A stretch of DNA of 64,000 nt from contig CALUOO010000009.1 in the NCBI GenBank assembly GCA_944322345.1, forward strand, positions 86,837 through 150,836, in the 5' to 3' direction. Origin of the DNA: an uncultured Bacteroides sp. (GTDB taxonomy: Bacteria > Bacteroidota > Bacteroidia > Bacteroidales > Bacteroidaceae). Positions within the stretch are counted from its first letter, which is position 1. Each line of letters starts with the position of its first letter. Positions 2,661-16,869 of this stretch are shown piece by piece. The notes under the pieces were generated by a model. That model was not told the DNA's origin and searched no databases. It saw only the letters and a list, made by a program, of their open reading frames with translations. The position numbers and the translations under genes are program-made.

Positions 2661-2946
2661 ATTTAAACATAAGTTGTTTACCGTATATCCTTGCTACTTC
2701 AAATTCTGCCATGCATCCCTTGCTTTTTTGCCATCCTTCCAAAAAACATACTGCATCGCATTCGAGTAATGCTTGTATGTCGTGTCCCATGTGCTCTGCA
2801 TAAGTAGCGTCTTGGTCTGGTGATACTTCTATTGGTGATATTGGCGTATGTCCTTCTTGTTCCAGTACTGCCGATACGAAGATGCAACGTGCTTCTACTA
2901 CTTCAATATCGTACCCACTGATTGGTAATGATATGTATACTTTCAT
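2659..2946 (-). CDS. DUF4406 protein, nucleoside deoxyribosyltransferase-like
   Basis: A 95-residue protein starting MKVYISLPISGYD, with a mid-protein DIQALLECDAVCFLEGW and an AEFEVARIYGK helix. This is the DUF4406 pattern, related to nucleoside 2-deoxyribosyltransferases (YISLPIS-type phosphate loop, the downstream acidic residue). It could cleave or transfer the sugar of a nucleotide. Phages carry it widely and its substrate is unknown. Its start overlaps the ASCH gene stop as ATGA. Confidence 0.75.
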   Translation of the reverse strand: MKVYISLPISGYDIEVVEARCIFVSAVLEQEGHTPISPIEVSPDQDATYAEHMGHDIQALLECDAVCFLEGWQKSKGCMAEFEVARIYGKQLMFK

Positions 2947-3353
2947 TTAAGTCCCTCCCAATTGTATTCCCAAAAACTAAGTTTCCCTTTCACGCCCTTA
3001 ATCTGTTTCTCAAAGAGAATCGCATCCTTCAGCACCCAGTTCCAGCAACCTTTGTCAGCCCAAACAGAAGGATGGTTCTGTACACAATCGACTATTACAA
3101 CACTGCCAATGATGGCACAACTTGGATAACCACTCCAATCTGTTCCGCTCTTAGATACTTTTCTTATAAATTTATCAACTCGCGTTCTTACTTCTTTAGG
3201 ATAATTCCAATAGTCATCTGATTTCTTACTTACATGTATCAGTATTCTTTGTCCTATATACTTCTGAGGACACTTCCAAGTGCGGTTCTCAATGTCTTTG
3301 ATACCGTGAGCGATTAAGCTCGCCCACGGCTGTTTAATAGATAATGCTTTCAT
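2943..3353 (-). CDS. ASCH-domain protein
   Basis: I start it at MKALSIKQPWA (137 residues), 7 bp after the radical SAM stop and preceded by AAAGAAGAA; the frame is open further upstream but would overlap the radical SAM gene. The SIKQPWASLIAHGIKDIENRTW motif is the hallmark of ASCH domains, a PUA-like fold thought to bind RNA or modified nucleic acid. A central IGSVVIVDCV strand and the closing FWEY motif also fit. Function in the phage is unknown; neighbours suggest nucleic-acid modification. Confidence 0.82.
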   Translation of the reverse strand: MKALSIKQPWASLIAHGIKDIENRTWKCPQKYIGQRILIHVSKKSDDYWNYPKEVRTRVDKFIRKVSKSGTDWSGYPSCAIIGSVVIVDCVQNHPSVWADKGCWNWVLKDAILFEKQIKGVKGKLSFWEYNWEGLK

Positions 3354-3360
3354 TTCTTCT

Positions 3361-4284
3361 TTATAAATATTCTTTACATTTAAATCCTTTTCTCGGTTCA
3401 AAATCTTTAAACTCGCAAGTTCTGAATATCCATTTCTTGTCTGCCCAACCCGCCACATCCTTTTGCCATTGAGGGATGATCTGACGCGGGTTGTCCAAGT
3501 CCCGATAAGGCTGTGCGTGTGGCAAGAATCTGCGTCCTTTGTTTCTCCAATGGTTTACCCGGTTGAATGACTCCTTGAAATCTTCAAGCAGAATACAATA
3601 GAAGAAGTATTCTCCTTTGTATCCGTATTTGTCAATCAAGGAAGTTGCCCGTTCACATTCAGCTATTTGTCCGGGTGTATCACAACCAAAGCGAATGCGC
3701 TTTATCCATTTGACTTTTGCAAGTAGTTTGGCTATATCATCTGTTACTAAACGTGCATCCAGAGCCTGATTAAAATCAACCCGTAACTTCATTCGTACAA
3801 TCTTCTCTATTTGTTCTAATCCATAATCGGATGCAAGTACGTTATTATCCATTAGAATAAGATTGTTTCGCCCATTGATAGCTATTTCTTCAACATCCAT
3901 GTAAGGTTGTATCTTTCCTTCTTTTCGTGGAACAATACACCACTTACAACGGTTGGGGCAACCGCGAGTAAGGAAACCGTAAGCTGTCTTTTGGTCGATG
4001 GACGGGTACATGCTGTAGTCAGGTTGCATCCTGTCTATCACTTCCGGCAAGTTCTTCCCAATATCATACCCGGTTCCGCCTTTCTCCACACAATCGGTAT
4101 TAGTGATATATTGAATATAATCTTCTGTAAACGAAAAGACTTTTGCCATATATACCTTATCGTAATGGGTAAACGGATTGTACCATTCCACGTTATCACC
4201 TTGCAACTTATGCCATGCGCTTATTTTCATAAGTGCGATATTCGGATAATTGCTGTCGACTGCAAGCAAACCTATATTCATCAT
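3361..4284 (-). CDS. Phage radical SAM protein
   Basis: A 307-residue protein with the iron-sulfur motif CPNRCKWC (CX3CX2C, near residue 109), preceded by a B12-binding-like N-terminal region (NIGLLAVDSNYPNIALMKISAWH). It should bind a 4Fe-4S cluster and cleave S-adenosylmethionine to start radical chemistry. The acidic patch LILMDNNVL after the cluster resembles the usual second strand of the barrel. The start (ATGATG) overlaps the helicase-methyltransferase stop. Substrate unknown; the ASCH, DUF4406 and methyltransferase neighbours hint at nucleic acid or nucleotide modification. Confidence 0.85.
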   Translation of the reverse strand: MMNIGLLAVDSNYPNIALMKISAWHKLQGDNVEWYNPFTHYDKVYMAKVFSFTEDYIQYITNTDCVEKGGTGYDIGKNLPEVIDRMQPDYSMYPSIDQKTAYGFLTRGCPNRCKWCIVPRKEGKIQPYMDVEEIAINGRNNLILMDNNVLASDYGLEQIEKIVRMKLRVDFNQALDARLVTDDIAKLLAKVKWIKRIRFGCDTPGQIAECERATSLIDKYGYKGEYFFYCILLEDFKESFNRVNHWRNKGRRFLPHAQPYRDLDNPRQIIPQWQKDVAGWADKKWIFRTCEFKDFEPRKGFKCKEYL

Positions 4285-6794
4285 CCCGCCTCCATCATGT
4301 CGAACAACGTCGGTGCGCTTACTTCCATCTCCGCCTCGTAGAGGTAGGATAGTCCGTCCTTCCAGTAGTCATAGTTGAGTTCTGTGGATAAGCCGCGCCG
4401 CCCCAGCTTGATTGCGCAATATGGCACGGTCTGTATGCCGCCGAAGGGGTCGAACACCGTTTCGCCCTTGTTGGAGTAGCGTTCAATGAGGCGCTCTACG
4501 ATGTCGAGCTGGAGGGGGCAGATGTGGTTTTGCCGCTTCTTCTGCGACTGGCGGGTGTTGAGTGTGCGCATTCTGGTAACGTCGTCCCACACCCACGGCT
4601 TTTTGCTTACAGGATCTACTGCCATGAATGTTTTAGGAAGCTTCCCGTATGCTTCTAGTTCTTCGGCGAAGCGAACATGTTGCTCGTAGCTATAGATGTG
4701 TTCCTGCTCGTATTGTCGGAACAGACGGCGTATCTTGTCGATTCCAGCTCCTTTCATGTCTTCGTAGGATAGGAGAGTGTTTCCTGATGATTTCCACGAT
4801 GCGTGTGCGTCTATCTGCCAGCGTGCCAGCGAGTAGTCTTCTTTCTGCTTCGTGACGGGCAGGTCGGCGTAGGCGCGCGATGTGTCTGTAGGAAGTTTGC
4901 GGAATAGCAGAATATATTCTGGGCAACCGACTCCCATTTTTGTGCCATCCTTTCGCATTTCAGTGTAGCCGAGCCGATAGGTTTGATTGTTCTCGCGTAC
5001 CACGTCAGTATCTACGGTAATGCGACCGACGTAGCGGAATCCGTGTTTCATGTAGTGGAAGACGGTCATGTCACTGAAGGGATCTACCGTCGGCATTCCG
5101 TCGCCCGTTGCGTTTCCAAACAGGATGCGGTCTTTCACATGGATGCAGGCGAGTCGTCCGGGCTTGAGGATGCGCATCAGTTCGGGAGTCAGGTAGTCCA
5201 TCTGCTCGAAGAACTTCAGGTTGTCCTCGTTGTGCCCGAAGTCGTTGTATGTTGGCGTATACTCGTAGTGGTTTGAAAATGGTATACTGGTTACTATCAG
5301 GTCTACTGAGCTTGACTCCATTTTCTGGCACTCCAGCACGTTGTCGTTATTGATGGCGCGCCACAATCGCCCTTGCTTCTCTTCGCGGGCGGCGAACATC
5401 CAGCGCATCATCTTCTCTTCTGCTTTGAGTCCGAATAGTCCGTTGTCGCGTACTATCTGCGTCATGCGGTCTACCATGTCTCGGTGCTGCTTCCACTTCT
5501 TCATGAAGCTCTTGAATATCTCCTGCTCGCTCTCGGCATAGACGAGGTAGAGGTCGACGGGGTGTTGCTGCATGAATCGGTAGATGCGGGCAATTGCTTG
5601 GAACTTGTCGTTGAATCGGTAGTCGATAAACATGATTGCTTTGTGGCAATGGTACTGAAAGTTCAGTCCCTCGCCCAGCATTTCCGGCTTGGCGGCGAGG
5701 TACTTCAAACGCCCCTCCTTGAAGTCGGATATTACGCGGTCTGCCTCATCGTCTGGCTGGCTTCCGTATACCGCCTTGCAGCCTTCTATCCTCCGGCATA
5801 GCTCGATGCGTTCGTCTTCGAGGTCGTGCCATAGCAGGAAATGGTCGTCCATGTTCTCTTCCCTGCCTATTATCTCTATTACTTTGTCTATCTTGAGCTG
5901 CATGTTGTCTCGCCGTTCGCGCGCCGCTTCTGCGAGCCCCAACGCCGCTTCGCGGAACATCTTCACCTGCCCGTTGCGGTCTGTCCCGGCGGTGGAATTG
6001 TCTACGCTTACTATTTCCTCGTGCACTCTCAGTTCTGGCAATTCGTAGCCTGTGTCGGGGTAGCCTAAATCGGAGGGTCGTGTCAGGAACAATGCCCATG
6101 TAGATACCCATAGCCAGAACTCTTTTTCTTTGTGTGGGTAGAGTGTCAGGTTGTTTGCCTTTGTGCTGTCTCGCTGGAAGAAGCGTGTCAGTGCCTGTCC
6201 GGTGTCCATCACGCCGAGATAGCCTGCGTAGTGTATCAGTTCCTTGTATCGGTTGGGCGACGGCGTGGCGGTTGCCACAAACTTGTAGGGCACGGCGCTG
6301 AACAATGGAAGGAACTCCTGATAGGTCTTGGTTCCGAACCCTCGCAACACGCTTGCTTCGTCGAGCGAGGTGACGGTGAAGTAGGAGGGCTCGATGCGTA
6401 CGCCCTCTTTTCCGTCTCGTACCCGTTCGTAGTTGGTTATCATGATGTCTGTCGGGCTATCTTTCACTTCCTGCATCGTCCGGACGTAGGTGACTTCCAT
6501 TCCTAAATGTTGCTTCGCTTGGTGCAAGAACTCTATCACTACACGCTTGGGGCAAACTATCAATCCTTTGCCTCCTTCGTGTTTCAGCACGATGCGGACT
6601 ATCTCCAGTTGTGTCACTGTCTTCTGCATGCCGAAGCTGCTGAATATCGCCCGGCAACCGCCCTGCACTGCCCAACGTACGGTGTCCTTTACGTGGGGGT
6701 AGAGTGTTGGTGTCAACTCTTCTGGCTTCACCTCAAATCCGGTGTTGTGACTGATAGCCATCTTGTCTTTTAGAAATTCTATGTAGGTTTTCAT
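4281..6794 (-). CDS. SNF2-like helicase / DNA methyltransferase fusion
   Basis: An 837-residue fusion. The first 460 residues follow the SF2 helicase order: a motif I position reading FGMQKT (53-60), a DE box in TSLDEAS (145-146), TATPSP (motif III), a LGEGLNF stretch and QAIARIYR (motifs V-VI). The C-terminal half is a beta-class amino methyltransferase: TSIPF (502-506) in the catalytic motif IV place, a central variable region, then FDPFGG (motif I, SAM binding). Probably modifies phage DNA, possibly with translocation along it. The motif I Gly of GxGKT is Gln and motif IV is not the usual DPPY, so activity needs testing. ATGA overlaps at both ends. Confidence 0.85.
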   Translation of the reverse strand: MKTYIEFLKDKMAISHNTGFEVKPEELTPTLYPHVKDTVRWAVQGGCRAIFSSFGMQKTVTQLEIVRIVLKHEGGKGLIVCPKRVVIEFLHQAKQHLGMEVTYVRTMQEVKDSPTDIMITNYERVRDGKEGVRIEPSYFTVTSLDEASVLRGFGTKTYQEFLPLFSAVPYKFVATATPSPNRYKELIHYAGYLGVMDTGQALTRFFQRDSTKANNLTLYPHKEKEFWLWVSTWALFLTRPSDLGYPDTGYELPELRVHEEIVSVDNSTAGTDRNGQVKMFREAALGLAEAARERRDNMQLKIDKVIEIIGREENMDDHFLLWHDLEDERIELCRRIEGCKAVYGSQPDDEADRVISDFKEGRLKYLAAKPEMLGEGLNFQYHCHKAIMFIDYRFNDKFQAIARIYRFMQQHPVDLYLVYAESEQEIFKSFMKKWKQHRDMVDRMTQIVRDNGLFGLKAEEKMMRWMFAAREEKQGRLWRAINNDNVLECQKMESSSVDLIVTSIPFSNHYEYTPTYNDFGHNEDNLKFFEQMDYLTPELMRILKPGRLACIHVKDRILFGNATGDGMPTVDPFSDMTVFHYMKHGFRYVGRITVDTDVVRENNQTYRLGYTEMRKDGTKMGVGCPEYILLFRKLPTDTSRAYADLPVTKQKEDYSLARWQIDAHASWKSSGNTLLSYEDMKGAGIDKIRRLFRQYEQEHIYSYEQHVRFAEELEAYGKLPKTFMAVDPVSKKPWVWDDVTRMRTLNTRQSQKKRQNHICPLQLDIVERLIERYSNKGETVFDPFGGIQTVPYCAIKLGRRGLSTELNYDYWKDGLSYLYEAEMEVSAPTLFDMMEAG

Positions 6795-7177
6795 CTTTTC
6801 TCGAATAAATGTTCAAATGCTCTTTCTCCGTCTATCTCCAACCCTAATTTCGATGGGAACGATTGTACATATTCATACAGTCTGTACAGCAGTTTATCGT
6901 TGTCTCCGCAACGGTCTATCACTGTTAGCAGCATTGCGTTCACCATATCTGCGTCGTTACCGAAGTTTCCCTGTGTTTCTTGTGTACAGTGGTTCAGGTC
7001 TCTTTTCAACTTCTTGATGCTGGCTATTGCTGTGTTGAAATTACGTTTGGCATCGTGGCGCAATTCGTATCCTTCTTTCCGGTACTGCTGTTGCATCTCC
7101 ATCAGGTTTGTTTCCAACACGTCTGTTATCACGTAGACTATGTTGGTCATTGTATTCAGTTTGTCTGTCCCTTCCAT
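6791..7177 (-). CDS. Phage protein of unknown function
   Basis: A 128-residue, soluble, largely helical protein. I recognise no family. A central segment (residues 40-70) is Lys-rich with Cys and a C-terminal FEHLFEKR. It overlaps the helicase-methyltransferase start as ATGA, so the two are translated together and it may assist that enzyme. It is the first gene of the block after a 186-bp gap with RNA-like structure. Confidence 0.6.
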   Translation of the reverse strand: MEGTDKLNTMTNIVYVITDVLETNLMEMQQQYRKEGYELRHDAKRNFNTAIASIKKLKRDLNHCTQETQGNFGNDADMVNAMLLTVIDRCGDNDKLLYRLYEYVQSFPSKLGLEIDGERAFEHLFEKR

Positions 7178-7202
7178 TTTCGTTTCCCTTTCTACTCCCT
7201 TC

Positions 7203-7245
7203 TACTGCCCTTATAAGTCGTTACCCGACTACCCTTCGGGCAGTA
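7203..7245. other. Nested inverted repeats in the 7178-7363 gap
   Basis: TACTGCCC (7203-7210) pairs perfectly with GGGCAGTA (7238-7245), and inside it AGTCG (7216-7220) pairs with CGACT (7226-7230). The gap of 186 bp has no ORF. Candidates are a leader RNA, a processing site or a replication/nicking origin. A second small hairpin (AAGCACC-TTAT-GGTGCTT, 7319-7336) sits just after the next gene's stop. Confidence 0.45.
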
Positions 7246-7318
7246 TAGGACAAGTTGCCGTAATTTGTTAATTTAACACTTTGTTGCTCTTATTGTATTG
7301 ATTATCAGTTTATTAATT

Positions 7319-7338
7319 AAGCACCTTATGGTGCTTTT
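7319..7338. terminator. Possible terminator hairpin after the 333-residue-frame gene
   Basis: AAGCACC, loop TTAT, GGTGCTT, 7-bp perfect stem. A T-run (TTTT) follows on the plus strand; on the minus strand, where the gene at 7364-8311 ends, the tail is only AATTAAT. It may slow or partly stop leftward transcription between the two phage blocks. Confidence 0.4.
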
Positions 7339-7363
7339 AACTTATTATATAAATATTTGATTA

Positions 7364-8311
7364 TCAGATGTTTATGTAATTCCTTGCAGGCGTAAATATT
7401 CCCAACTGCCAGTTTTTGAGTAGCCGTTCTTTGAACTCCTGTTCCAGAGTTCCCACCTCTTCTGTGTAGTTCGTCCTCTCTTTGTTCCAACGGTTCGCAA
7501 ATGTCCGTATGGTCTCCCATTGCTTCTTTGTAAGCTTTCCGTCAAGATATAATTGCTTATATCGCTCCTTGTATCGGGTGACTCCGAGCCGGTGTATCTC
7601 CCTTGCTCGGTCGAGTTGCGACATCTTTACCCCTTTGGCGGCTGTCAGTTCGCGGTCAAACTCCAGCCCCGACCAGTCGTTGTAGAAGATTTTGCCTATC
7701 TTGCACAGGTAGCTGTTCTCTATCAGTTGTACCAACGGTACGGACTGGTGGCGGTAGATGGTTTCTATGCGCAATACGTTGCTCCCTACGTGGTGCCCTT
7801 TCTCCGCCTGCTCGTAGGTCTTGTCGTATATCTTCATCACCTTCCGGTAATACTTGCTCTTCTCTGTAGTCTTCTGCTTGTATTCCGGATAGTTGGCATC
7901 GTTCCACAATATGCGGTCAGAAGCTCTCAACACTTGCCGTATATACATCTCTGCCGCTTGTTCCAGCCTCATCGTAATTCCTATCTCATAGTAGGTCACT
8001 ACTGCATTTTCTGGCTTCACGCATAGCCTCATCATCAGTTCTCGTATTGTTCTTACAGCCATTGCAAATGTCATTGGTCTGCTGTTGTCCAGCTTACCAG
8101 TTTTTCCTTTGCTGTATAGCTTACAGATTGAACACTTACATCTTAACCTGTTCCCGCGCACCTCTACGAAGCATCCGTCAAAGTTGGCGTAGGCTGTTGA
8201 CTTGTAATAAAGTTCGTCCCCTTCGGTGCATTGCTCTAGATAGTTCCGCAATACGATTGTTCCGATGTCGTCCATGTTGATAGTGGCCTTGATGATCATC
8301 TTGTCGAACAT
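7364..8311 (-). CDS. Phage protein, possible replication initiator (weak)
   Basis: A protein of about 315 residues. The open frame reaches 8365 but that would overlap the upstream gene by 70 bp; better starts are MFDKMII at 8311 or MIIKATI at 8299, the latter forming ATGA with the upstream stop. Segments YYEIGITMRL and VLRIETIYR recall the catalytic barrel of filamentous-phage gene II/X replication proteins, but I do not see the full motif set. A CKCSICKLY stretch could bind metal. Treat function as unknown. Confidence 0.6.
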   Translation of the reverse strand: MFDKMIIKATINMDDIGTIVLRNYLEQCTEGDELYYKSTAYANFDGCFVEVRGNRLRCKCSICKLYSKGKTGKLDNSRPMTFAMAVRTIRELMMRLCVKPENAVVTYYEIGITMRLEQAAEMYIRQVLRASDRILWNDANYPEYKQKTTEKSKYYRKVMKIYDKTYEQAEKGHHVGSNVLRIETIYRHQSVPLVQLIENSYLCKIGKIFYNDWSGLEFDRELTAAKGVKMSQLDRAREIHRLGVTRYKERYKQLYLDGKLTKKQWETIRTFANRWNKERTNYTEEVGTLEQEFKERLLKNWQLGIFTPARNYINI

Positions 8312-8493
8312 CTTCGTTTCTGTACAAAGTGCATACACATTCGCGTTCCTATCGATCGTTTCCACCCAACTACATCACATGCTACCATGTAGTTCTCTAC
8401 CGACCCTGCATGCTTGCAATCCCTACAGTCACATTTCTTCTTTTCGTATAGATTTTCCTGCGACTGTTCTTCTTGTTTTATTTTCTTGGCCAT
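8296..8493 (-). CDS. Small Cys-rich phage protein
   Basis: 65 residues with five Cys, in the pattern CDCRDC ... C ... C, plus a basic C-terminus. This could be a small zinc-binding protein. The stop overlaps the next gene by ATGA if that gene starts at 8299. No family recognised. Confidence 0.6.
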   Translation of the reverse strand: MAKKIKQEEQSQENLYEKKKCDCRDCKHAGSVENYMVACDVVGWKRSIGTRMCMHFVQKRRCSTR

Positions 8494-8497
8494 CGTA

Positions 8498-8914
8498 TTA
8501 AAGTTGCTTTTCGGCTTTGATTCGTTTCACCTCCTTTCGGTAGTGGTCTATCATTGCCTTGTATTCAAATTCCGTTATCTTTTTAGTCTCGTGCTTCATG
8601 GCTTCCAGCCACAACACTACCGGCTCTCCGTATTTGGCTATTAGCCCACGTCTGTATCCCTGTATGTTCCCTTCGTCGTAGCGGTTACACTGGCGGCATT
8701 GGGCGTTGCAGTTCTTCTCGCTGTATCGTAGTGACATGTGCTGCCGGTTGATGTAGTGCCCGCAATCTGCTTGCTCATATGGTTTTATCTTCCCACACGA
8801 TATGCAGACGAATGTTCCGTCCCTCCTCGCGTCTCTCAGGCGGATATACTCGCTGAACGTGTTGTCAAGCCGTGCCATTAGGCTGTTCCGTTTCCCTTTT
8901 CGTCGTGGTATCAT
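8498..8914 (-). CDS. ninG: NinG/Rap-like recombination nuclease
   Basis: 138 residues with the NinG pattern: CISCGKIKPYEQADCGHYI, NCNAQCRQCNRY and a basic C-terminus. In lambda, NinG (Rap) is an HNH-type nuclease that resolves Holliday junctions and recombination intermediates. It sits in the early recombination/replication block, overlapping the upstream gene by ATGA. Confident. Confidence 0.88.
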   Translation of the reverse strand: MIPRRKGKRNSLMARLDNTFSEYIRLRDARRDGTFVCISCGKIKPYEQADCGHYINRQHMSLRYSEKNCNAQCRQCNRYDEGNIQGYRRGLIAKYGEPVVLWLEAMKHETKKITEFEYKAMIDHYRKEVKRIKAEKQL

Positions 8915-9240
8915 AGCAATATGCCTAATACTTTAAGGTACTGTTCTTCATCCCTGAACCGGATGGCATTCTTATACCATTCTCCGTTTTTTGCCTGATA
9001 GGGCATGCTGTCCATTTCTTCATTGTTCACTCTCGATATGATTGCTTCACGGTGGTTGTTGTTCCACATGATGGCTAGGTCTCCTATCTTTGGAAGCTCT
9101 TCCTCACATTCAGTTCGTTCACATTTTACGGTTCGTGGCTCTTCCTCTTCCGGTTCTATCACTATCAGAATCTTTCCGCATTCGTCTTTTACAGACAGTG
9201 TGCTACCTTTCGGTATCTTTATCTTATTCAGTAGTTCCAT
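8911..9240 (-). CDS. Phage protein of unknown function
   Basis: Taken from MELLNKIKIPKG (109 residues); the longer start at 9267 would overlap the upstream gene more. An acidic stretch EPEEEEPR lies in the middle and the C-terminal half is a small basic domain. Overlaps ninG by ATGA. No family recognised. Confidence 0.55.
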   Translation of the reverse strand: MELLNKIKIPKGSTLSVKDECGKILIVIEPEEEEPRTVKCERTECEEELPKIGDLAIMWNNNHREAIISRVNNEEMDSMPYQAKNGEWYKNAIRFRDEEQYLKVLGILL

Positions 9241-9478
9241 AGTTCCTTTCGCTTTCAATGCTGTCATAATAGTCTTGTTTGCTCAAGTATTCGTCCACCA
9301 CTTCGCTCATAGATGCTTTTCCTCCCAATTCATCCTTGATGTAGTGATACTGTTCGTCGCTCATAGTTCTCACCACCTCTTCTTCAAAGTCCATTCTTCC
9401 TGCGTAGGCAAAAGCGGCCACAACAAAAGCCGCTGCAATTCCTTTCAGAGTGCGTTTTGTCAATCTGTTAGCATCCAT
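9224..9478 (-). CDS. Small phage membrane protein
   Basis: 84 residues with one hydrophobic helix near the N-terminus (GIAAAFVVAAFAYAG) after a basic segment, then an acidic soluble tail. Likely anchored in the inner membrane with its tail on one side. Function unknown. Confidence 0.55.
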   Translation of the reverse strand: MDANRLTKRTLKGIAAAFVVAAFAYAGRMDFEEEVVRTMSDEQYHYIKDELGGKASMSEVVDEYLSKQDYYDSIESERNYGTTE

Positions 9479-9480
9479 AC

Positions 9481-9933
9481 TTAGCTCTCCTTTTCAGGTT
9501 CATACATGAAAACGTCCAAAATCGTAGTCTCTGCTACAGATATTATTCGATAGTCTGCCAGCGTTCCCTTCATTCCTTCGTCCAACCTCTTCACTGCTTC
9601 TCTCAGGTCTGTAGCCTCTACCAGCATGTTGCTGTATTTCTTTTTTTCTGCTCCCGACTTTTCATCCAGTGTCACAAAGGCTACACGCACTTTATACCAT
9701 TTGTCATCTTTCAACTCGTTGCTTTGGAATATCTCGGCATAGTTGCATTTCTTCACCGCCTTCACATCATACTCACACCCTTCTTTCAGGAACGGCTGCA
9801 CCATCTCCGTCACCCGTGCTTCTGCTTCCGTGAAGCTGAGCGCATCACACAGATAGTTCTCAGTTATCTTTTTCTCTGTCCCGTTCTCCTGTGTCTTCTC
9901 GTAGCTTACACAGCATTCAAACCATTTATTCAT
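9481..9933 (-). CDS. DUF4494 protein
   Basis: 150 residues. It carries the DUF4494 pattern: WFECCVSYEKT at the start, LSFTEAEARVTE, then KWYKVRVAFVTLDE and TTILDVF near the end. The family is common in Bacteroides phages and mobile elements and has no known function; the ending residues are acidic. It is part of the early operon. Confidence 0.75.
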   Translation of the reverse strand: MNKWFECCVSYEKTQENGTEKKITENYLCDALSFTEAEARVTEMVQPFLKEGCEYDVKAVKKCNYAEIFQSNELKDDKWYKVRVAFVTLDEKSGAEKKKYSNMLVEATDLREAVKRLDEGMKGTLADYRIISVAETTILDVFMYEPEKES

Positions 9934-9954
9934 ATCTTCTGTATTTTTTATAGG

Positions 9955-10188
9955 TTAATAACTCTTGAATTTCACCGGTTCCCTGTCCGGACGTAGATGT
10001 GCCATGCAGGCACTCCTGAAATAGCAGAAATTCGCTCCTTCTCCTTTGTCGAATATGCATCCGTGACACATCGTAATGCAGCGGTTGTCCACCTTAGCCC
10101 GTACCACCCGTATCTTAACTCCTTCTCCTTCTACGTTGCTGCCCACTTTCGTCTCTCGCAGCTTGCTCAATAGATCATTTCCTTCCAT
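9955..10188 (-). CDS. Small Cys-rich phage protein
   Basis: Taken from MEGNDLLSKL (77 residues); earlier starts run over the upstream gene. Cys at four or more places (CITMCHGCIF, CYFRSAC) suggest metal binding. Function unknown. The start is 4 bp from the stop of the SSB-tip protein gene. Confidence 0.55.
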   Translation of the reverse strand: MEGNDLLSKLRETKVGSNVEGEGVKIRVVRAKVDNRCITMCHGCIFDKGEGANFCYFRSACMAHLRPDREPVKFKSY

Positions 10189-10192
10189 ATGC

Positions 10193-10585
10193 TCAGAATG
10201 GTAGGTCGTCGTTGTTCTCAACGTCGGCAACAGTTGTACTCAACATGCTTGTTCTGTTCACCTGTTCCATCGGCTTCATGTTTCCCAGAAAAGGCTTTGC
10301 CTTCAGCTCTTCTTCTGTCATGGTCTCACGGAATTGTTTCGACAGCGATTGCTTCACTGCATGGCTGTTCCCGTATTGGTCAAGTCCCGATTCGCTTTGG
10401 TTTTCATACAGGTTCAATCCCAGATAGGCGCCTTTGGCACGTCCCGTCTGTTCGTCCACGCTTATGTAGATGTCATTCTCTTCTACCTGGATCACTACAC
10501 ACACCTTCGCTCCGCTCTTTCCGTTGATGGTTATCACGCCAGTGTGCTCCAGCCTCATCAGATTAATTTTCCCTGTCAGATTCAT
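10193..10585 (-). CDS. Phage protein with SSB-like C-terminal tip
   Basis: 130 residues. The first 60 form a beta-rich domain (TGVITINGKSGAKVCVVIQVEENDIYISVDEQT); the last residues, NNDDLPF, match the acidic-aromatic tip of bacterial SSB (DDDIPF), which docks repair and replication proteins. It may be a single-stranded DNA-binding protein or a mimic of the SSB tail. It lies in the early block and starts with an ATGA overlap. Inferred. Confidence 0.6.
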   Translation of the reverse strand: MNLTGKINLMRLEHTGVITINGKSGAKVCVVIQVEENDIYISVDEQTGRAKGAYLGLNLYENQSESGLDQYGNSHAVKQSLSKQFRETMTEEELKAKPFLGNMKPMEQVNRTSMLSTTVADVENNDDLPF

Positions 10586-10779
10586 TTCTCAGCCCTCCAC
10601 AGTTTTAATATTTCACTCCCTAAGTAGAACTTACGTTCTGTCATTCTCCTGAATCCACATTTTATTTTCTTTGCCTCCGTATATCTCCGAAGGGTGTTTC
10701 TGTGGATTCCTAATGCGCTGCAGGTTTCAGTCACCGAATACCTGCCTGTCATACTTACTTGCGGTTCAATTGGTGTCAT
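10582..10779 (-). CDS. HTH protein, MerR/excisionase-like
   Basis: 65 residues with a winged-helix core: YSVTETCSALGIHRNTLRRYTEAKKIKCGFR, as in MerR-type and excisionase DNA-binding domains. First gene of the early leftward operon, so a likely regulator. ATGA overlap with the next gene. Confidence 0.7.
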   Translation of the reverse strand: MTPIEPQVSMTGRYSVTETCSALGIHRNTLRRYTEAKKIKCGFRRMTERKFYLGSEILKLWRAEK

Positions 10780-10864
10780 TGTATCGATTATTTTATGGTG
10801 AATACTCGTTCCCGTTCCGGTAAACTCACCCGGCGTGAAAGGCTGCTCTTTACGGGATTCTTCT

Positions 10865-10872
10865 TAACTTTG
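10865..10872 (+). promoter_or_regulatory. -7 box (TAACTTTG) for the isolated membrane gene
   Basis: TAACTTTG matches the Bacteroides TAnnTTTG consensus and lies 28 bp before the ATG at 10900. No strong -33 box. It gives the plus-strand membrane gene its own promoter inside the leftward early region. Confidence 0.5.
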
Positions 10873-10899
10873 GGGTGTCAAATCAAAAAATTAAGAAGT

Positions 10900-11334
10900 A
10901 TGTCTATCGAAAAAATCAAACAGGCTGTAGCTCTGAACGAACATCTATTTTCTCGGATGAAGGAGAAACAAGAATCATGGTTTCGCCATCTTTCCATCCT
11001 GCTTTCCACTCTTCTTGGTATAATAGTCTCCCTTGCAGATAAAACAGGTGATAACCCAGCACATCACTTCTGCATGGCATTCGGAGTCTCGTCACTATGC
11101 ATTGCGCTCCTTTTGTCATTGATTCTTCTATTTTACAAATCAACTTGGCTTTCCAATAAGGAATTTGCCACGTACCGGGAGCAACTAAAAAAAGTTGACA
11201 TGCGTAGCGACTCTTCGGAGATAGTATACTATTCAACATCTCTACCTTCCTTTCTCGTTTTCGTCGAAGCGCTCGATTATCTTTCCATAGCCTCAGCCTT
11301 TGTAGCATTTGCTGTATCATTTTGGGTGGAATAA
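10900..11334 (+). CDS. Isolated small membrane protein, possible moron gene
   Basis: 144 residues from MSIEKIKQAV (the open frame starts upstream but the AAGAAGT ribosome-site-like stretch and the promoter box fit this start). A soluble, coiled-coil-like N-terminus (residues 1-35) precedes about three hydrophobic segments: near 40-55, 68-93 and 120-143. It is the only plus-strand gene among leftward phage genes, with its own promoter box and ending 16 bp from a converging gene. That layout is typical of phage morons expressed in the lysogen, e.g. exclusion proteins. Function unknown. Confidence 0.65.
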   Translation: MSIEKIKQAVALNEHLFSRMKEKQESWFRHLSILLSTLLGIIVSLADKTGDNPAHHFCMAFGVSSLCIALLLSLILLFYKSTWLSNKEFATYREQLKKVDMRSDSSEIVYYSTSLPSFLVFVEALDYLSIASAFVAFAVSFWVE

Positions 11335-11350
11335 GATTTCTTTTATTCAC

Positions 11351-12220
11351 TCACTTTACAACGTCCTCCAGCCTCCTAAGCAGCGACTTAGTGTCATCCA
11401 CTATTTCTCTCAACTTCCCCTTATCATCTGCTTCTGTAGTCTCGTCTTTTGCAACACTTGCATGCATTGCCTCTATCATCACTGTATTATTGTCCAACAC
11501 ATTCAATATCGAGCTAACCACTATCCGTTTCCTGTTCTCAAATAGTTTTCCGCAATCCTGCTGCTCAATCCCAAATTTCACTTTTATCACATTGATAATC
11601 GCCTTGTATTGCCTTTCGTATACAGTGCCCTTATACGTATCTTCCACTTTCTTCTCAAACTCCTCTATGCTTCCACGAAAGCATCCACAGGTAATTTCTA
11701 CAGTTCCATTACTGGTCATGTATGCATGTGTGTGCCTATTAACTGAGCCGAAACAGTCAAAACCGCAGTGTTGATTATTGTTTTCTACCTTAGCATCGCC
11801 GTGCACCCAAGCATCGCCGTACACCCAAGCATCGCCGAACACCCTAGCATTGCCGTACACCCAAGCATTGCCGTACACCTGAGCATCGCCGAACACCCTA
11901 GCATCGCCGTACACCCTAGCATCGCCGTACACCCATGCATTGCCGTACACCCTAGCATCGCCGTACACCCATGCATTGCCGTACACCCATGCATTGCCGT
12001 ACACCTGAGCATTGCCGTACACCTGAGCATCGCCGTGCACCCATGCATTGCCGTACACCCAAGCATTTCCATATTGAGATAAGTTCTTTTCATCTTCTAT
12101 GAATCCGCCCTTATCTCCTCTCTTAACATCCCCAAAGCTTTCCAAACTCCTAATACGATAGAGCTTTCTTCCTGATATTTCTTTACAATCAGTTTTTATT
12201 AATTCATATTTCTTTTCCAT
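11351..12220 (-). CDS. Hexapeptide-repeat beta-helix protein
   Basis: 289 residues in three parts: an N-terminal 49-residue domain (YELIKTDCKEI..GRKLYRIRSL), 16 tandem hexapeptides (residues 50-145, consensus (Y/H/F)G(N/D)A(W/R/Q)V), and a 140-residue C-terminal domain with a CGCFRGS-like segment and long helices. Hexapeptide repeats of this type fold as a left-handed beta-helix. Related YGNAWV-repeat proteins occur in phages, role unknown; a scaffold or surface-binding function is possible. The repeat DNA is near-perfect 18-bp units, so copy number could vary. Confidence 0.75.
   Translation of the reverse strand: MEKKYELIKTDCKEISGRKLYRIRSLESFGDVKRGDKGGFIEDEKNLSQYGNAWVYGNAWVHGDAQVYGNAQVYGNAWVYGNAWVYGDARVYGNAWVYGDARVYGDARVFGDAQVYGNAWVYGNARVFGDAWVYGDAWVHGDAKVENNNQHCGFDCFGSVNRHTHAYMTSNGTVEITCGCFRGSIEEFEKKVEDTYKGTVYERQYKAIINVIKVKFGIEQQDCGKLFENRKRIVVSSILNVLDNNTVMIEAMHASVAKDETTEADDKGKLREIVDDTKSLLRRLEDVVK
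11786..12073 (-). repeat. 16 x 18-bp coding tandem repeat
   Basis: Sixteen imperfect 18-bp units inside the beta-helix gene. Units differ mainly at codons for residue 1 (Tyr/His/Phe), 3 (Asn/Asp) and 5 (Trp/Arg/Gln/Lys). Because 18 is a multiple of three and the units lack stops, several other frames are also open here; these are by-products. Confidence 0.9.
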
Positions 12221-12240
12221 ACTCTTCCCTTTCTTTCATT

Positions 12241-12441
12241 CTAGTTCAATCTCGTTACCTCGCATTCGTCAATCATCCCGGCCTCAGATAGCTTAATATC
12301 TATTCCTTCCTTTTTCAGCCTGTTTTTGGCTGTCTTTACAGCACTCAATTTGAAATCTCTACTTTTGATTCTCATTGTCTCACCGATCTTCATTCTACGG
12401 AGAGTTTCTGTTAATGATTTTTTAACAACAAAACTTTGCAT
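12241..12441 (-). CDS. Small basic phage protein
   Basis: 66 residues, strongly basic (KKSLTETLRRMKIGETMRIKSRDFKLSAVKTAKNRLKKEG). It may bind nucleic acid. First gene read from the operator-controlled leftward promoter, so it could be an early regulator. No family recognised. Confidence 0.55.
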   Translation of the reverse strand: MQSFVVKKSLTETLRRMKIGETMRIKSRDFKLSAVKTAKNRLKKEGIDIKLSEAGMIDECEVTRLN

Positions 12442-12463
12442 ATCATTCTGTATCTAAAACACA

Positions 12464-12513
12464 ATCCCCCGCACCTTCCTGCTGATGTGGTGTTGCAGGT
12501 CAGTACGGGGGAT
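12464..12513. other. Nested hairpin in the early leader
   Basis: ATCCCCCG (12464-12471) pairs perfectly with CGGGGGAT (12506-12513); inside it CCTGC (12478-12482) pairs with GCAGG (12495-12499). It lies in the untranslated 240 nt between the leftward promoter and the first gene. GC-rich in an AT-rich leader, so possibly an attenuator, antitermination site or small RNA. The rest of the 12442-12688 gap shows no gene. Confidence 0.5.
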
Positions 12514-12688
12514 ACTCACTAGGTTTACTTTATGTCAATTAGAAATCAGAAACACCACTAACCAATTTCCACTGTCAATACTTTGAGAAATGGAAAAGCT
12601 GTACTATATTTGTTGCGTTGTGTGTATGTTGTATGGCAAATAGTCATACAGCCCTTCCTTTTCGTAAGGCAGTTTTGCTTTACTGGTA

Positions 12689-12719
12689 CAAAGATGAATA
12701 GAATATATTCTAATTCAAA
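12689..12719 (-). promoter_or_regulatory. Leftward phage promoter with operator in the spacer
   Basis: On the minus strand: a TTTG -33 box (12719-12716), a 19-nt spacer and CATCTTTG (12696-12689), one base from the TAnnTTTG consensus. The palindrome TAGAATATATTCTA (12699-12712) sits in the spacer, so a bound repressor would block the promoter. Confidence 0.65.
12699..12712. promoter_or_regulatory. Operator O1 (14-bp palindrome)
   Basis: TAGAATATATTCTA, perfect palindrome. The same core recurs at 12727-12742, with centres 29 bp apart, as for paired phage operators next to a repressor gene. Confidence 0.75.
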
Positions 12720-12726
12720 CTTTTAC

Positions 12727-12742
12727 ATAGAATATATTCTAT
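12727..12742. promoter_or_regulatory. Operator O2 (16-bp palindrome)
   Basis: ATAGAATATATTCTAT, perfect palindrome, 29 bp before the repressor ATG (12772). A weak TAGTTTAG box (12742-12749) overlaps its edge, so binding here may also control the repressor itself. Confidence 0.75.
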
Positions 12743-12771: not shown

Positions 12772-13167
12772 ATGGAAATTAAAGAACGTATTCAGGAATA
12801 CCTTAAAAATAAAGGTGTTACAATAGCAGAGGTTGAGCGTATGCTTAAATGGGGGAATGGTTCTTTTAGTAAGCCTAAAAGCGTGTCTGCGGATAGAGCA
12901 AGAGAATTTCTTCTATTATTTGATGACCTATCCGCAGAATGGCTGATGCGCGGTGAAGGAGAAATGTTTAAATCCTCATCGCAAAAGATTGGCAATATTT
13001 CTCATAGTTCTGCAGTAGTAAATAATGGTAATGGTAATAGTATCGCTAATAATGATTTATCCAAAATGATAGAACTTCAGCAAGAGTATATCTCTATGCT
13101 CAAAAAGAAAGATGAACAGATAGACAGATTAACCATCGTTATAGAAAAAATGACAAACAGACTATAA
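12772..13167 (+). CDS. Phage repressor (HTH plus coiled coil)
   Basis: 131 residues: an N-terminal HTH domain (residues 5-35, KGVTIAEVERMLKWGNGSFSK), a linker with Asn/Gly/Ser repeats (NNGNGNS) and a C-terminal coiled coil (MIELQQEYISMLKKKDEQIDRL) that could mediate dimerisation. It faces two palindromic operators and a leftward early promoter, the layout of a CI-like lysogeny repressor. No RecA-cleavable Ser/Lys peptidase domain is seen, so induction would use another route. Confidence 0.8.
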   Translation: MEIKERIQEYLKNKGVTIAEVERMLKWGNGSFSKPKSVSADRAREFLLLFDDLSAEWLMRGEGEMFKSSSQKIGNISHSSAVVNNGNGNSIANNDLSKMIELQQEYISMLKKKDEQIDRLTIVIEKMTNRL

Positions 13168-13178: not shown

Positions 13179-13937
13179 ATGAGTAACAGTGAACAAAATA
13201 ATGATTCTGTCATTCAAAAAAATGGTAGAATTTATATGAAACTTTCTGATGGTAGATATTGGTGTCCCAGTCGGCAGTTTAGAGACGGAAGCCCAACAAG
13301 AAGAACATTAAAAAACACCGAAATTAATTCTCAGACAAGTTCACGCCAATCTAACTTTTTCCCAAAACAGTTAACTTTTAATGCTGTCGATTTTGAAACA
13401 GCTACCACAGATCGTTTTATTTGTCAGGTAGGCATTGTTTCTGTTAAAGATGGGGTAATTGTTGAAAAAGTATCTATGCTTATTCAACCTCCCGGAAATC
13501 GGTACGATACAAATACGATAATGGTTCACCATATTACCCCTAAAGATACTGAAAACTCTATGACTTTTAAAGAGGCTTGGTGTGACTTGAAAAAATATTT
13601 TCAGAATACACTTGTTGTTGCTCATAATTCCGCTTTTGATGAAGATGTATTACGTAAAAATCTGAAATATTATGGTATTCTCGATTCTGAAATTTCCCCT
13701 TTCCTGTGTACATGTCAACTGTATAAACATCTTGCATATTCCAAAGGTATAGACATCAAAGCTGGTCTCAAGGATTTATGTTTGGCATTCAATCTTTCAT
13801 ACGACAATCATCACGATGCCTTATTTGATTCCGATTGTTGTGCTAATTTTTATCTTAACTATGTAAATGGGATTGAACCGGATTATAGCCTCATCGAAAA
13901 AAATGAAACTATACATCCACAGCAAGAAGAAAGGTGA
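13179..13937 (+). CDS. DEDDh 3'-5' exonuclease, phage cargo
   Basis: 252 residues. After a 65-residue N-terminal region (GRIYMKLSDGRYWCPSRQF) comes a DnaQ-type exonuclease domain (about 65-230): Asp71 and Glu73 in VDFETAT, HNSAFDED (Asp154) and HHDALFDSD (His212, Asp217). All five DEDDh positions are present. It begins 11 bp after the repressor stop and leads an operon with a second exonuclease. Probably degrades or trims DNA or RNA 3' ends; the role in the prophage is unknown. Confidence 0.85.
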   Translation: MSNSEQNNDSVIQKNGRIYMKLSDGRYWCPSRQFRDGSPTRRTLKNTEINSQTSSRQSNFFPKQLTFNAVDFETATTDRFICQVGIVSVKDGVIVEKVSMLIQPPGNRYDTNTIMVHHITPKDTENSMTFKEAWCDLKKYFQNTLVVAHNSAFDEDVLRKNLKYYGILDSEISPFLCTCQLYKHLAYSKGIDIKAGLKDLCLAFNLSYDNHHDALFDSDCCANFYLNYVNGIEPDYSLIEKNETIHPQQEER

Positions 13938-13979
13938 ACAGATAGATAAGTTATTGTAGATAATTTCAGAAAAGTAGAT

Positions 13980-14864
13980 ATGAAGAATGCCAACTTTGTT
14001 GCTATAGATTTTGAAACTGCCACTAAAAGTAGATTTGCATGCCAACTTGGTATCATAATAGTAAATTCCGGTCTAATAAAGGACAGGTTATCTTTTCTTA
14101 TACAGCCTCCGCTTAATAAATATGACGATGATTTAATAGATATTCATCACATCACCCCCGATATAACTGCTAATGCTCCTACTTTTGATATAGTATGGAA
14201 AGAGATAAAACAATATTTTGACTGTAATTTTATTGTTGGCCACAATGTAGGGTTCGATATAAATGTCCTTTACAAGAACTTGGATTTTTATAACATTGAA
14301 CGTCCTGTTCTTATGGGTACTTCTTGTACTTACGAATTAACCTCCCTTCCTTTGGATGAAGCTTGCGAAATATACAATATACCACTCCCTAATCACCACG
14401 ATGGAACATGTGACGCTGAAGCTTGTGCTTTGTTGTTTCTTAAATATCTGAATCGTGAACTCAATATCCCTTATCAAAATCAAAAGTATTCTCCGAGTAA
14501 GCATATTAACTCTACACAACATAAAATTCTATTAGAAGGTTATTCTCAAAACGATCCGCTCGGCCAACTTACCGATGACTCCATCAACTCATTGGGAGCT
14601 ATACCGGATTTTCAAGGCAAAAGGTTCTTGATAACCGGAGCTACCATATTCAATAGAGATAAAGCATATTCAATTATCAAAGCACTCGGTGGAAAGAAAT
14701 CTTCTACAATAAATAAGTCTTTAAACTATGTAATAGTAGGTGTCGAAGCAGGACCTAAAAAAATGGAAATTATAAATCATTTGAATCAGAATGGCTGCTC
14801 TATAGAAATTATATCAGATTCTTCGTTTATAGATATATTGAGAAAGCATAAAATATTAAAATAA
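13980..14864 (+). CDS. DEDDh exonuclease with C-terminal BRCT domain
   Basis: 294 residues. The exonuclease domain (1-160) has Asp10/Glu12 (IDFETA), GHNVGFDIN (Asp93) and NHHDGTCDAE (His140, Asp145), and is about as long as, and similar to, the domain of the gene upstream, suggesting duplication. A BRCT domain follows (about 208-294): FQGKRFLITGATI, ALGGKKSS, LNYVIVG and closing EIISDSSFIDIL. DnaQ-BRCT joins occur in bacterial repair proteins; BRCT may recruit it to DNA ends or partners. The stop abuts the next gene (1 nt). Confidence 0.85.
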   Translation: MKNANFVAIDFETATKSRFACQLGIIIVNSGLIKDRLSFLIQPPLNKYDDDLIDIHHITPDITANAPTFDIVWKEIKQYFDCNFIVGHNVGFDINVLYKNLDFYNIERPVLMGTSCTYELTSLPLDEACEIYNIPLPNHHDGTCDAEACALLFLKYLNRELNIPYQNQKYSPSKHINSTQHKILLEGYSQNDPLGQLTDDSINSLGAIPDFQGKRFLITGATIFNRDKAYSIIKALGGKKSSTINKSLNYVIVGVEAGPKKMEIINHLNQNGCSIEIISDSSFIDILRKHKILK

Positions 14865-14865
14865 C

Positions 14866-15636
14866 ATGAATGTAAGTAATGATTTATTTGGCAATATCTC
14901 TTATCCTTTTGAAGGAGTAAGGGTGTATCTATCAGGAAAATTCACACAACCTAAAGAACTAATATCTGATAGACTTTATGATTCAGGAGCCATTGTCAAG
15001 TCTGTAGGGCCTGTTAGTTCTACTAATTATCTCGGTCTTTCAAAAGATACGTGTGTTGTTATTGCTGGGGGTGAACTTTCAGAACAAGAACTTTTAAAAC
15101 TTGACACATTACGTCACGATGGCTTTTATATACCTGTCATTTCCGAAAATGAGATGAATGAGATTATTAATGGTAATATAAAACGTGAATTTCCTGCTCC
15201 TATCAAAAATGTAGATATTACGTACGACTTTATATTCAATAGCCGTACTCCAATGATTCAACATTTCAATTTTTACGGATACACCCATTCACTAGGACAA
15301 AAAGAACTTTTTGTTCACGATTTAAAAGGTAATAAAGATTGCTTATTGCAAAGTCTCGGTAATATTGGTGCTTACTCCAATTTCGAATTTGACCCAAAGT
15401 CGATAGACTATTGCTGGCTTAAGAATGAAACCATCAATAAACTTAAAAAAGGAGAGAAAGACGAATTTATTCAAATCATAACTGAAAAGTATAATTCTTC
15501 TGCTGCAAATAAATTTACATATAAGTTTATCATTGAATCCGAAGCTGTTTTTTGGATGCTATTCCGAGCAAAAGAGATTGGTGATAATGTATCACTTTAT
15601 TATCTGAATAAGTATCTTCAGAGCATCTATGAATGA
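14866..15636 (+). CDS. BRCT-like protein
   Basis: 256 residues. Residues 15-100 look like a second BRCT fold (FEGVRVYLSGKF, DSGAIVKSVGPVSSTNYLGLSKDTCVVIAGG, then VISENEM). The rest (about 110-256) is unfamiliar, with a SRTPMIQHFNFYGY segment and a helical C-terminus. It starts 1 nt after the exonuclease-BRCT stop, so they are surely co-translated. Probably a partner of the exonucleases. Confidence 0.65.
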   Translation: MNVSNDLFGNISYPFEGVRVYLSGKFTQPKELISDRLYDSGAIVKSVGPVSSTNYLGLSKDTCVVIAGGELSEQELLKLDTLRHDGFYIPVISENEMNEIINGNIKREFPAPIKNVDITYDFIFNSRTPMIQHFNFYGYTHSLGQKELFVHDLKGNKDCLLQSLGNIGAYSNFEFDPKSIDYCWLKNETINKLKKGEKDEFIQIITEKYNSSAANKFTYKFIIESEAVFWMLFRAKEIGDNVSLYYLNKYLQSIYE

Positions 15637-15678
15637 TATAGATCAGCCCATATCTGAAGATTCAAGAGTTTATTGAAA

Positions 15679-16206
15679 ATGGGATCGGGAACTGATAAGA
15701 ACAAAAATAGACAGTTAATATTAAACAGCACTGTAGGTACTGCACTGTCTATTATTATAGGTAAAATCCTTGAAAAGACATTTAATATTGATTTTTCCTA
15801 TCATATACATCGAATAAATGATTGGATTGTATCATTCATGAATATGGATATAAAAATATGGCATGTTATTGTTTCTGTTTTAGCCCTAATCCTATTATAT
15901 ATCATTTCCCAACTTTTTTATAAAAAGATGAAGAAAGAGGAGTATTTATCACACTCCAAAATAATGTATCGAGATGTCCTTTGGTCATGGGAATGGAAAC
16001 TTAGATTCAGGCATTTTAAGTTTGAATGGCATATCTACAACGTCATACCTCTTTGCCCCAAAGACGGAACTCCATTGACCTACAATGCATGTTGCCCAAT
16101 GTGCTATTCTACGTTTATAATTCTTCCAGAATATATAAACGATGTTGTGCTATTGGTTTACAGCCAACTTAGTAATAAATATCCATCTTTTCGACAATCT
16201 CCGTGA
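15679..16206 (+). CDS. Membrane protein with C-terminal Zn ribbon
   Basis: 175 residues from the ATG at 15679 (a TTG two codons upstream is an alternative). Two hydrophobic segments (near residues 14-36 and 60-83) are followed by a soluble part holding CPKDGTPL...CCPMC, a possible zinc ribbon. Last gene of the exonuclease/BRCT operon. No family recognised; it could tether the system to the membrane. Confidence 0.65.
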   Translation: MGSGTDKNKNRQLILNSTVGTALSIIIGKILEKTFNIDFSYHIHRINDWIVSFMNMDIKIWHVIVSVLALILLYIISQLFYKKMKKEEYLSHSKIMYRDVLWSWEWKLRFRHFKFEWHIYNVIPLCPKDGTPLTYNACCPMCYSTFIILPEYINDVVLLVYSQLSNKYPSFRQSP

Positions 16207-16816: not shown

Positions 16817-16862
16817 AATGCCTCTCACGCATGTAATACGAGTTCGATTCTCGTACCCACTA
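16817..16862 (+). other. 3' tRNA-Glu fragment, prophage attR
   Basis: The sequence reads as the 3' two-thirds of a tRNA: anticodon stem ATGC/GCAT with loop CTCTCAC (anticodon CTC, Glu), T-arm ACGAG-TTCGATT-CTCGT (16838-16854), acceptor 3' strand ACCCACT (16855-16861). The matching 5' acceptor (AGTGGGT) and D-arm are absent just upstream. Such truncated copies arise when a phage integrates into a tRNA 3' end; the whole tRNA should lie at the other end of the prophage, left of the window. Confidence 0.75.
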
Positions 16863-16869
16863 CTACACA

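What the first reader, a model, noticed from the sequence alone, without database searches (positions are those of the whole stretch)
13179..16206. Exonuclease/BRCT operon in the lysogenic-conversion slot of the prophage
Two DEDDh exonucleases in tandem, one with a C-terminal BRCT domain, a separate BRCT-like protein starting 1 nt later, and a two-helix Zn-ribbon membrane protein follow the phage repressor on the same strand and end near attR. Genes in this place are usually expressed in the lysogen and often protect the host (superinfection exclusion or defence). The combination of twin DnaQ-type nucleases, BRCT and a membrane protein is not a system I can name. Sequence shows domains and order; the defence role is inference.
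Basis: partly seen in the sequence, partly recalled or inferred. Interest (0 to 1): 0.78.

Follow-up and report, generated by a model that had tools for sequence, protein, structure and literature searches.

The report
Prophage exonuclease-BRCT cassette behind the repressor
A dormant virus in a gut bacterium carries, right behind its master switch gene, a DNA-end-chewing enzyme and a partner protein; related enzymes sit in the same spot in several unrelated dormant viruses, which suggests that they protect the infected cell from rival viruses.

Summary
They are not four independent parts.

(1) Genes 2+3 together equal one exonuclease-BRCT-BRCT protein with a weakly BRCT-like end, found as a single chain in relatives. 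The same split pair recurs in another provirus, also behind a repressor.

(2) The 'twin' nucleases are not a duplication: they fall in different lineages. The spacer between them is a decayed repressor tail, so two conversion cassettes were stacked; gene 1 was probably cut off at the join.

(3) Relatives hold this slot widely: in 12 of 14 phage records opened (Staphylococcus, Streptococcus, Moraxella, Campylobacter) the gene lies behind a CI/HTH regulator, under names such as polymerase subunit, DNA ligase or DinG.

(4) A membrane partner occurs in some loci only; gene 4 has no convincing relative.

Best reading: a lysogen-expressed cassette that attacks DNA ends of incoming phage. Slot and protein logic are shown; defence is inference. 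Main rival: DNA repair, because in two other Bacteroidales the exo-BRCT gene overlaps the LigA gene.

The parts
12698..12741 (.). two identical 15-bp palindromes, starts 29 bp apart; likely operators of the repressor
   Evidence: the repeat finder D9/I1; operator role inferred from position and symmetry
12772..13167 (+). phage repressor (HTH), presumed first gene of the lysogenic transcript
   Evidence: HTH_19 E 8.5e-6 (below Pfam's curated cut-off), phrog_8/phrog_4 regulators E 2.5e-6 and 4e-5
13179..13937 (+). gene 1: short WCPSRQ module + DEDDh exonuclease, no BRCT; probably truncated at its 3' end
   Evidence: RNase_T E 1.2e-17; residues 4-252 align to residues 10-243 of the 649-aa fused protein L132, 38%, E 5e-46; groups with fused proteins L077/L044 (93/89)
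13924..13974 (+). decayed C-terminus of a second repressor gene (fossil of the cassette join); overlaps the end of gene 1 in another frame
   Evidence: second best of 127,900 six-frame positions of the window against C-termini of four other repressors: 39.25 versus 21.0 for the next; best of 351,688 control positions 29.0
13980..14864 (+). gene 2: DEDDh exonuclease + BRCT1 (LigA/RFC1-type)
   Evidence: 53% identical to L190, 46% to L131
14866..15636 (+). gene 3: BRCT2 + weakly BRCT-like C-terminal domain; the detached C-terminal half of the fused exonuclease
   Evidence: aligns to residues 284-522 of L077, E 1e-24; 62% identical to L190, 51% to L131; profile
15673..16206 (+). gene 4: protein with two hydrophobic stretches and four clustered cysteines (possible Zn ribbon); possible membrane partner
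   Evidence: hydropathy and cysteines; no convincing homologue
16818..16863 (+). attR: 46-bp copy of the tRNA-Glu 3' end

Best explanation
A lysogenic-conversion cassette of a Bacteroides-type prophage. Shown: the repressor and the operon are co-oriented with no + strand terminator-like site between 12772 and 16206; genes 2 and 3 correspond to the two halves of an exonuclease-BRCT1-BRCT2-C-domain protein that is one chain in relatives; a decayed repressor tail shows that two cassettes were stacked in this slot; homologous genes hold the same slot in phages of other phyla. Inferred: the genes are transcribed with the repressor in the lysogen; the exo-BRCT1 and BRCT2 proteins assemble, the LigA/RFC1-type BRCT domains grip DNA ends or nicks, and the exonuclease degrades the end of an incoming phage genome, perhaps held at the membrane by gene 4. 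The outcome would be superinfection exclusion. Gene 1 is a truncated older cassette whose catalytic motifs are intact and which may still contribute.
For: Slot: in 12 of 14 annotated phage records opened the gene lies behind a CI/HTH regulator on the same strand, 9 directly and 3 with one gene between; one of the 12 (Javan175) has the exonuclease without BRCT. Proviruses: L190 repressor -> exo-BRCT -> gene 3 homologue -> 278 aa -> membrane protein -> integrase; L191 repressor -> exo-BRCT -> integrase; 13 of 23 viral loci have an integrase/recombinase match within 5.4 kb downstream. Fusion: L077, L132. Stacking. Other cargo behind related repressors. Precedent: in S. [quoted passage not shown] Some chromosomal relatives lie by defence genes: L037 by Hachiman HamA/HamB, L077 by Fic and a TmtA-like protein (neighbours picked by eye). 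BRCT type: LigA and RFC1 BRCT chains. Membrane: TM gene directly downstream in the window, L078, L152 and L153; TM in cis in L156 and L193.
Against: No phage challenge data for any member were found. Exo-BRCT overlaps LigA in L040/L041, which fits repair. Several relatives sit in what read by eye as housekeeping surroundings (L131, L140, L141, L044). 9 of 23 viral loci showed neither a repressor-like nor an integrase match; Pmp8 and BDU-MI-1 break the slot rule. The membrane association is weak and post hoc: downstream co-oriented partners within 100 nt have a TM stretch in 4 of 9 genome loci and 4 of 14 viral loci, 8 of 23 in all, against 80 of 385 other ORFs; in phi12, Javan549, CJIE4-2 and Pmp8 the next co-oriented gene has none. 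PADLOC matches cover only the generic exonuclease domain. Resistance of phage 47 lysogens to kayviruses is assigned in print to pdpSau, in the lysis module, not to its exo-BRCT (PMC10127798, passages). Gene 4 has no convincing relative.
Confidence: 0.5

Rival explanations
1. DNA repair or end-processing cassette: exo-BRCT trims 3' ends or flaps at nicks for ligation, helping prophage excision, integration or host repair.
For: Exo-BRCT genes overlap the LigA gene in L040 and L041 and lie beside a convergent LigA gene in L038 (LigA domains confirmed); BRCT1 resembles LigA BRCT; stand-alone gene 3 relatives with no exonuclease beside them exist in another Bacteroidaceae genus.
Against: In phages it lies behind the repressor in 12 of 14 records opened, not among recombination/replication genes; related repressors in other prophages are followed by unrelated cargo (by eye).
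Confidence: 0.27
2. Lysogeny stabiliser: a 3'-5' exonuclease made with the repressor removes single-stranded 3' ends and so dampens SOS-driven induction.
For: Position directly behind S24-type repressors in phi12 and Mcat9 and near them in L191 and L194; that such repressors are cleaved in SOS is recalled.
Against: The window's own repressor is short and matched no S24 peptidase domain; neither did those of L190, Javan542 and L208.
Confidence: 0.1
3. Decaying passengers: gene 1 truncated, genes 2/3 split by mutation, gene 4 an orphan; no function left.
For: Gene 1 ends in a fossil repressor tail; genes 2/3 equal a broken-up fused protein.
Against: The same split is kept in L131 and L190 at 46-53% (gene 2) and 51-62% (gene 3) identity; catalytic motifs kept in both exonucleases; all four frames open.
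Confidence: 0.1

Closest known systems
phrog_192 'DNA polymerase exonuclease subunit' of temperate phages (e.g. Staphylococcus phi12 gp04, phage 47 ORF013, Streptococcus IPP/Javan exonucleases)
   Same: exonuclease+BRCT architecture; gene 2 matches residues 1-289 to profile 103-366 of 397 (E 1e-32); same place behind the repressor
   Different: 22-32% identity to gene 2 over 79-91% of it; no detached gene 3 homologue found in phage records; the phage BRCT match can be weak (phi12 E 7.5e-4); record names (polymerase subunit, DNA ligase, DinG) do not fit a single exo-BRCT protein behind the repressor
SNIPE, membrane-bound nuclease that cuts phage DNA during injection (PMC13190303, passages read)
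   Same: proposed logic: a nuclease plus DNA-binding part held at the membrane
   Different: SNIPE is one chain with DUF4041 and a GIY-YIG nuclease; neither domain matched here; the membrane link here is inferred
Tha in the cI operon of S. aureus phage 80alpha (PMC11087260, passages read)
   Same: prophage gene expressed with the lysogeny module starting from cI
   Different: HEPN-domain protein activated by tail proteins; unrelated protein
diDNases (DEDD family) in genomic islands, about a third next to HIRAN and HipA genes (PMC11706625, passages read)
   Same: DEDD nucleases in mobile elements, with a HIRAN partner in a subset, as in L078 and L152
   Different: NrnC-type dinucleases; the paper's text does not mention BRCT (0 occurrences)

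Membership tests
phrog_192 exo-BRCT of temperate phages | exonuclease followed by BRCT in one chain, profile match over most of the protein | tested here: met
   gene 2: residues 1-289 to profile 103-366 of 397, E 1e-32; gene 1 lacks BRCT and matches only 61-232
phrog_192 exo-BRCT of temperate phages | lies behind the repressor (feature proposed here, not part of the PHROG definition) | tested here: met
   window layout and 12 of 14 annotated records opened
NF004844 (PRK06195) DNA polymerase III subunit epsilon | score above curated cut-off 373 bits | tested here: not met
   124.8 (gene 1) and 124.7 bits (gene 2)
PADLOC PDC-S48 candidate defence protein | match over the whole profile, not only the exonuclease | tested here: not met
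   best stretches 6-169 and 1-180 of 411, 8-137 and 17-141 of 512
SNIPE | DUF4041 + GIY-YIG nuclease + TM | tested here: not met
   no DUF4041 or GIY-YIG match in any of the four proteins at E up to 1
Superinfection exclusion / anti-phage system | reduces infection by another phage | not testable with these tools
   needs phage challenge
Superinfection exclusion / anti-phage system | placed for expression in the lysogen | tested here: inconclusive
   co-oriented with the repressor, no + strand terminator-like site between 12772 and 16206; promoter-like matches in the region are at chance level (20 found, 23.2 expected); no expression data
Conserved four-gene system | same four genes together elsewhere | tested here: not met
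   only gene 2+3 recur together (L131, L190); gene 4 without convincing relatives

The most novel reading that the evidence does not exclude
Exo-BRCT proteins are an unnamed superinfection-defence family carried behind the repressor of temperate phages and satellites of at least four host phyla (phyla recalled). A LigA/RFC1-type BRCT recognises the free end of an injected genome; in Bacteroidales a dedicated BRCT subunit (gene 3) and, in some loci, a membrane or HIRAN partner place the nuclease at the entry site.
Probability: 0.35. Interest if true: 0.82.

Novelty: new variant of a known kind. Interest (0 to 1): 0.62.

Why it matters
A protein named in phage records as a polymerase subunit, DNA ligase or DinG helicase sits where temperate phages keep genes expressed in the lysogen. 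If it defends the lysogen, it is a widespread superinfection barrier overlooked through its annotation, with a testable end-recognition logic. The fossil repressor tail also shows, in one sequence, how conversion cassettes are stacked behind a repressor.

Tried and rejected
Rejected: tandem duplication of the exonuclease (gene 1 and gene 2 fall in different lineages; 41% to each other against 53% for gene 1-L077 and 46% for gene 2-L131). Rejected: a separate BRCT protein unrelated to gene 2. Rejected: fresh frameshift as the cause of the gene 2/3 split (same split in L131 and L190).

Led nowhere: gene 3 against phage records; gene 3 and gene 2 singly against viral contigs; A5 and gene 3 relatives in viral contigs (the last two found only the L190 contig again); A9 in 393 genomes of the order (only the window's own genome at E <= 1e-12); gene 4 in phages, viral contigs, 158 genus and 399 family genomes (besides its own, 2 and 3 marginal partial hits at E 4.5e-4 to 9.8e-4); DNA search of the L190 pair. 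One genome-contig scan gave 3 loci, all places already in hand. The wide BRCT searches were mostly hits in frames of LigA length; I followed those with other frame lengths and low E-values. HIRAN in the L196 partner was suspected by eye and not confirmed by Pfam. A third BRCT in the fused protein is not detected by Pfam in L077 (2 stretches). Listings of the literature searches showed nothing on this family; that covers the held open-access library only, and most papers were seen as listings.

Limits of counts: the 14 phage records opened were chosen for variety among annotated ones from 53 and 54 overlapping matches; three pairs are near copies, so about 9 distinct exonuclease types among the 12 that fit. 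In one search several repressor and integrase queries were taken by eye from the same loci, so those are self-matches. L081 dropped out of the tree (28 of 29 rows). Defence neighbours were hand-picked (10 proteins from 4 loci). In one search no target ORF was called in L136, L139, L146 and L149, and in L142 and L144 only an ORF of about LigA length was labelled. A fragment of L092 was dropped from an alignment after wrong coordinates. Many neighbour genes were named by eye from their first residues.
Full report
What is there. Four + strand genes follow the repressor (12772-13167): 13179-13937, 13980-14864, 14866-15636 and 15673-16206. Genes 1 and 2 carry an RNase_T/DEDDh exonuclease (E 1.2e-17 and 7.8e-15) and gene 2 a C-terminal BRCT (E 2.9e-9); gene 3 alone gives only E 0.075 to BRCT and gene 4 nothing above cut-off. 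Active-site motifs are present in both exonucleases, and gene 4 has two hydrophobic stretches and four clustered cysteines. The element is a prophage of about 40 kb: tRNA-Glu(ctc) plus a 46-bp exact repeat at its two ends, integrase at the far end, operon at the attR end. Two identical 15-bp palindromes, starts 29 bp apart, lie before the repressor, and no + strand terminator-like site lies between 12772 and 16206 (a consensus scan). The operon has 33.2% G+C against 45.3% in window 1-12,700 (prophage) and 36.8% in the chromosomal part.

Genes 2 and 3 are one protein in two pieces. In the same genus (L077) a single 522-aa protein has exonuclease, two BRCT domains found by Pfam and a further C-terminal domain: gene 2 aligns to its residues 1-264 (E 1e-56) and gene 3 to residues 284-522 (E 1e-24). 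The C-terminal domain is only weakly BRCT-like (L134 homologue E 4.7e-4, under the cut-off). A 649-aa protein in another genus of the family (L132) adds at its N-terminus the WCPSxQ module that gene 1 also has. The same split occurs in L131 (300 + 253 aa) and in provirus L190; gene 2 is 46% and 53%, gene 3 51% and 62% identical to these. In three other genomes a larger exonuclease-BRCT protein is followed directly by a gene 3 relative (L134, L140, L145); in L134, the one scanned, it also has DUF723 repeats. By profile BRCT1 resembles the BRCT of LigA and RFC1 and BRCT2 that of LigA.

The twin nucleases are two stacked cassettes. In the exonuclease tree gene 2 pairs with L131 (98/95) and gene 1 with the fused proteins L077/L044 (93/89, below the tool's star level) (28 of 29 rows entered). 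The spacer between gene 1 and gene 2 reads as a repressor C-terminus broken by a stop: against a profile from four repressors of other prophages it scores 39.25, second only to the window's own repressor (49.0) among 127,900 six-frame positions, the next being 21.0; the best of 351,688 control positions scores 29.0. The last codons of gene 1 lie in this stretch in another frame. So a repressor tail once stood directly before gene 2, as a repressor still does in L190, and a repressor + gene 1 piece was joined in front of it; gene 1 most likely lost its BRCT part at the join (inference).

The slot. I opened 14 annotated phage records, chosen for variety from 53 and 54 overlapping matches. In 12 the gene lies behind a CI/HTH regulator on the same strand: directly in phi12, 23MRA, 47, phi2958PVL, Javan310, Javan549, Javan542, Javan175 and Mcat9, with one gene between in phiARI0923, IPP44 and CJIE4-2. 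HTH or S24 domains were checked for phi12, Mcat9 and Javan542; for the others I rely on the record's annotation. Javan175 has the exonuclease without BRCT, phi12 a weak BRCT (E 7.5e-4), CJIE4-2 a clear one (7.3e-6). The misses are Pmp8 and BDU-MI-1, whose match covers the exonuclease part only and lies near primase/helicase and SSB genes. Among 23 viral loci, 8 have a repressor-like match within 1.1 kb upstream on the same strand and 13 an integrase or recombinase within 5.4 kb downstream; 9 have neither (several queries came from these loci). Similar repressors in other genomes of the genus are followed by other genes (L180, L181, L183, L184; read by eye). [quoted passage not shown]

Partners. 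A TM-bearing gene lies directly downstream in the window, L078 and L152 (these two with HIRAN, E 6e-12 and 7.7e-11) and L153; in L156 and L193 the exonuclease itself starts with a TM stretch. The association is weak when counted: 4 of 9 genome loci and 4 of 14 viral loci with a co-oriented gene within 100 nt downstream, against 80 of 385 other ORFs. In phi12, Javan549, CJIE4-2 and Pmp8 the next co-oriented gene has no TM stretch. Gene 4 has no convincing relative.

Function. Slot, cassette exchange, kept catalytic motifs, an end-binding type of BRCT (recalled for RFC1) and defence neighbours of some chromosomal relatives (Hachiman by L037, Fic and TmtA-like by L077, hand-picked) fit a lysogen-expressed barrier against incoming DNA. 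Against it: LigA overlap in L040/L041, housekeeping-looking surroundings of several relatives, and no experiment found. I put defence at about one half, repair at about one quarter.

Compared with what is known: gene 2 is a member of phrog_192 by architecture and profile; it is not a PRK06195 equivalog (124.7 of 373 bits), not SNIPE (no DUF4041 or GIY-YIG; SNIPE from passages of PMC13190303), and matches PADLOC PDC-S48 only in the generic exonuclease. The detached gene 3 subunit and the stacked cassettes did not turn up in the listings of the literature searches run.

Noticed in passing
window 11351-12220 (-): 289-aa phage protein made largely of short tandem beta-solenoid repeats (Pfam YdcK beta solenoid, E 5.8e-24), on the other strand beyond the repressor.
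   Followed up: partly
L040 5351-8691, L041 5587-8941: In two other Bacteroidales an exo-BRCT gene overlaps the end of a LigA gene by 4 and 11 nt (LigA domains), suggesting a repair operon.
   Followed up: partly
L133, L135, L137, L138, L143, L147: Stand-alone ~220-aa gene 3 relatives beside a putative lipoprotein gene, with no exonuclease next to them: a chromosomal relative of gene 3.
   Followed up: no
L134 5658-8590, L140 7415-10480, L145 7566-10319: Two-gene units: a large exonuclease-BRCT protein (DUF723 repeats by Pfam in L134) followed by a gene 3 relative.
   Followed up: partly
L037 8132-13894: 460-aa exonuclease-BRCT protein downstream of a Hachiman HamA/HamB pair and a 244-aa unknown gene, same strand.
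   Followed up: no
L079 7875-8420 and L080 8034-8579: Truncated exo-BRCT ORFs of equal length with the same displayed ends in two genomes, followed by the same 274-aa gene but in different surroundings: a recently mobile fragment.
   Followed up: no
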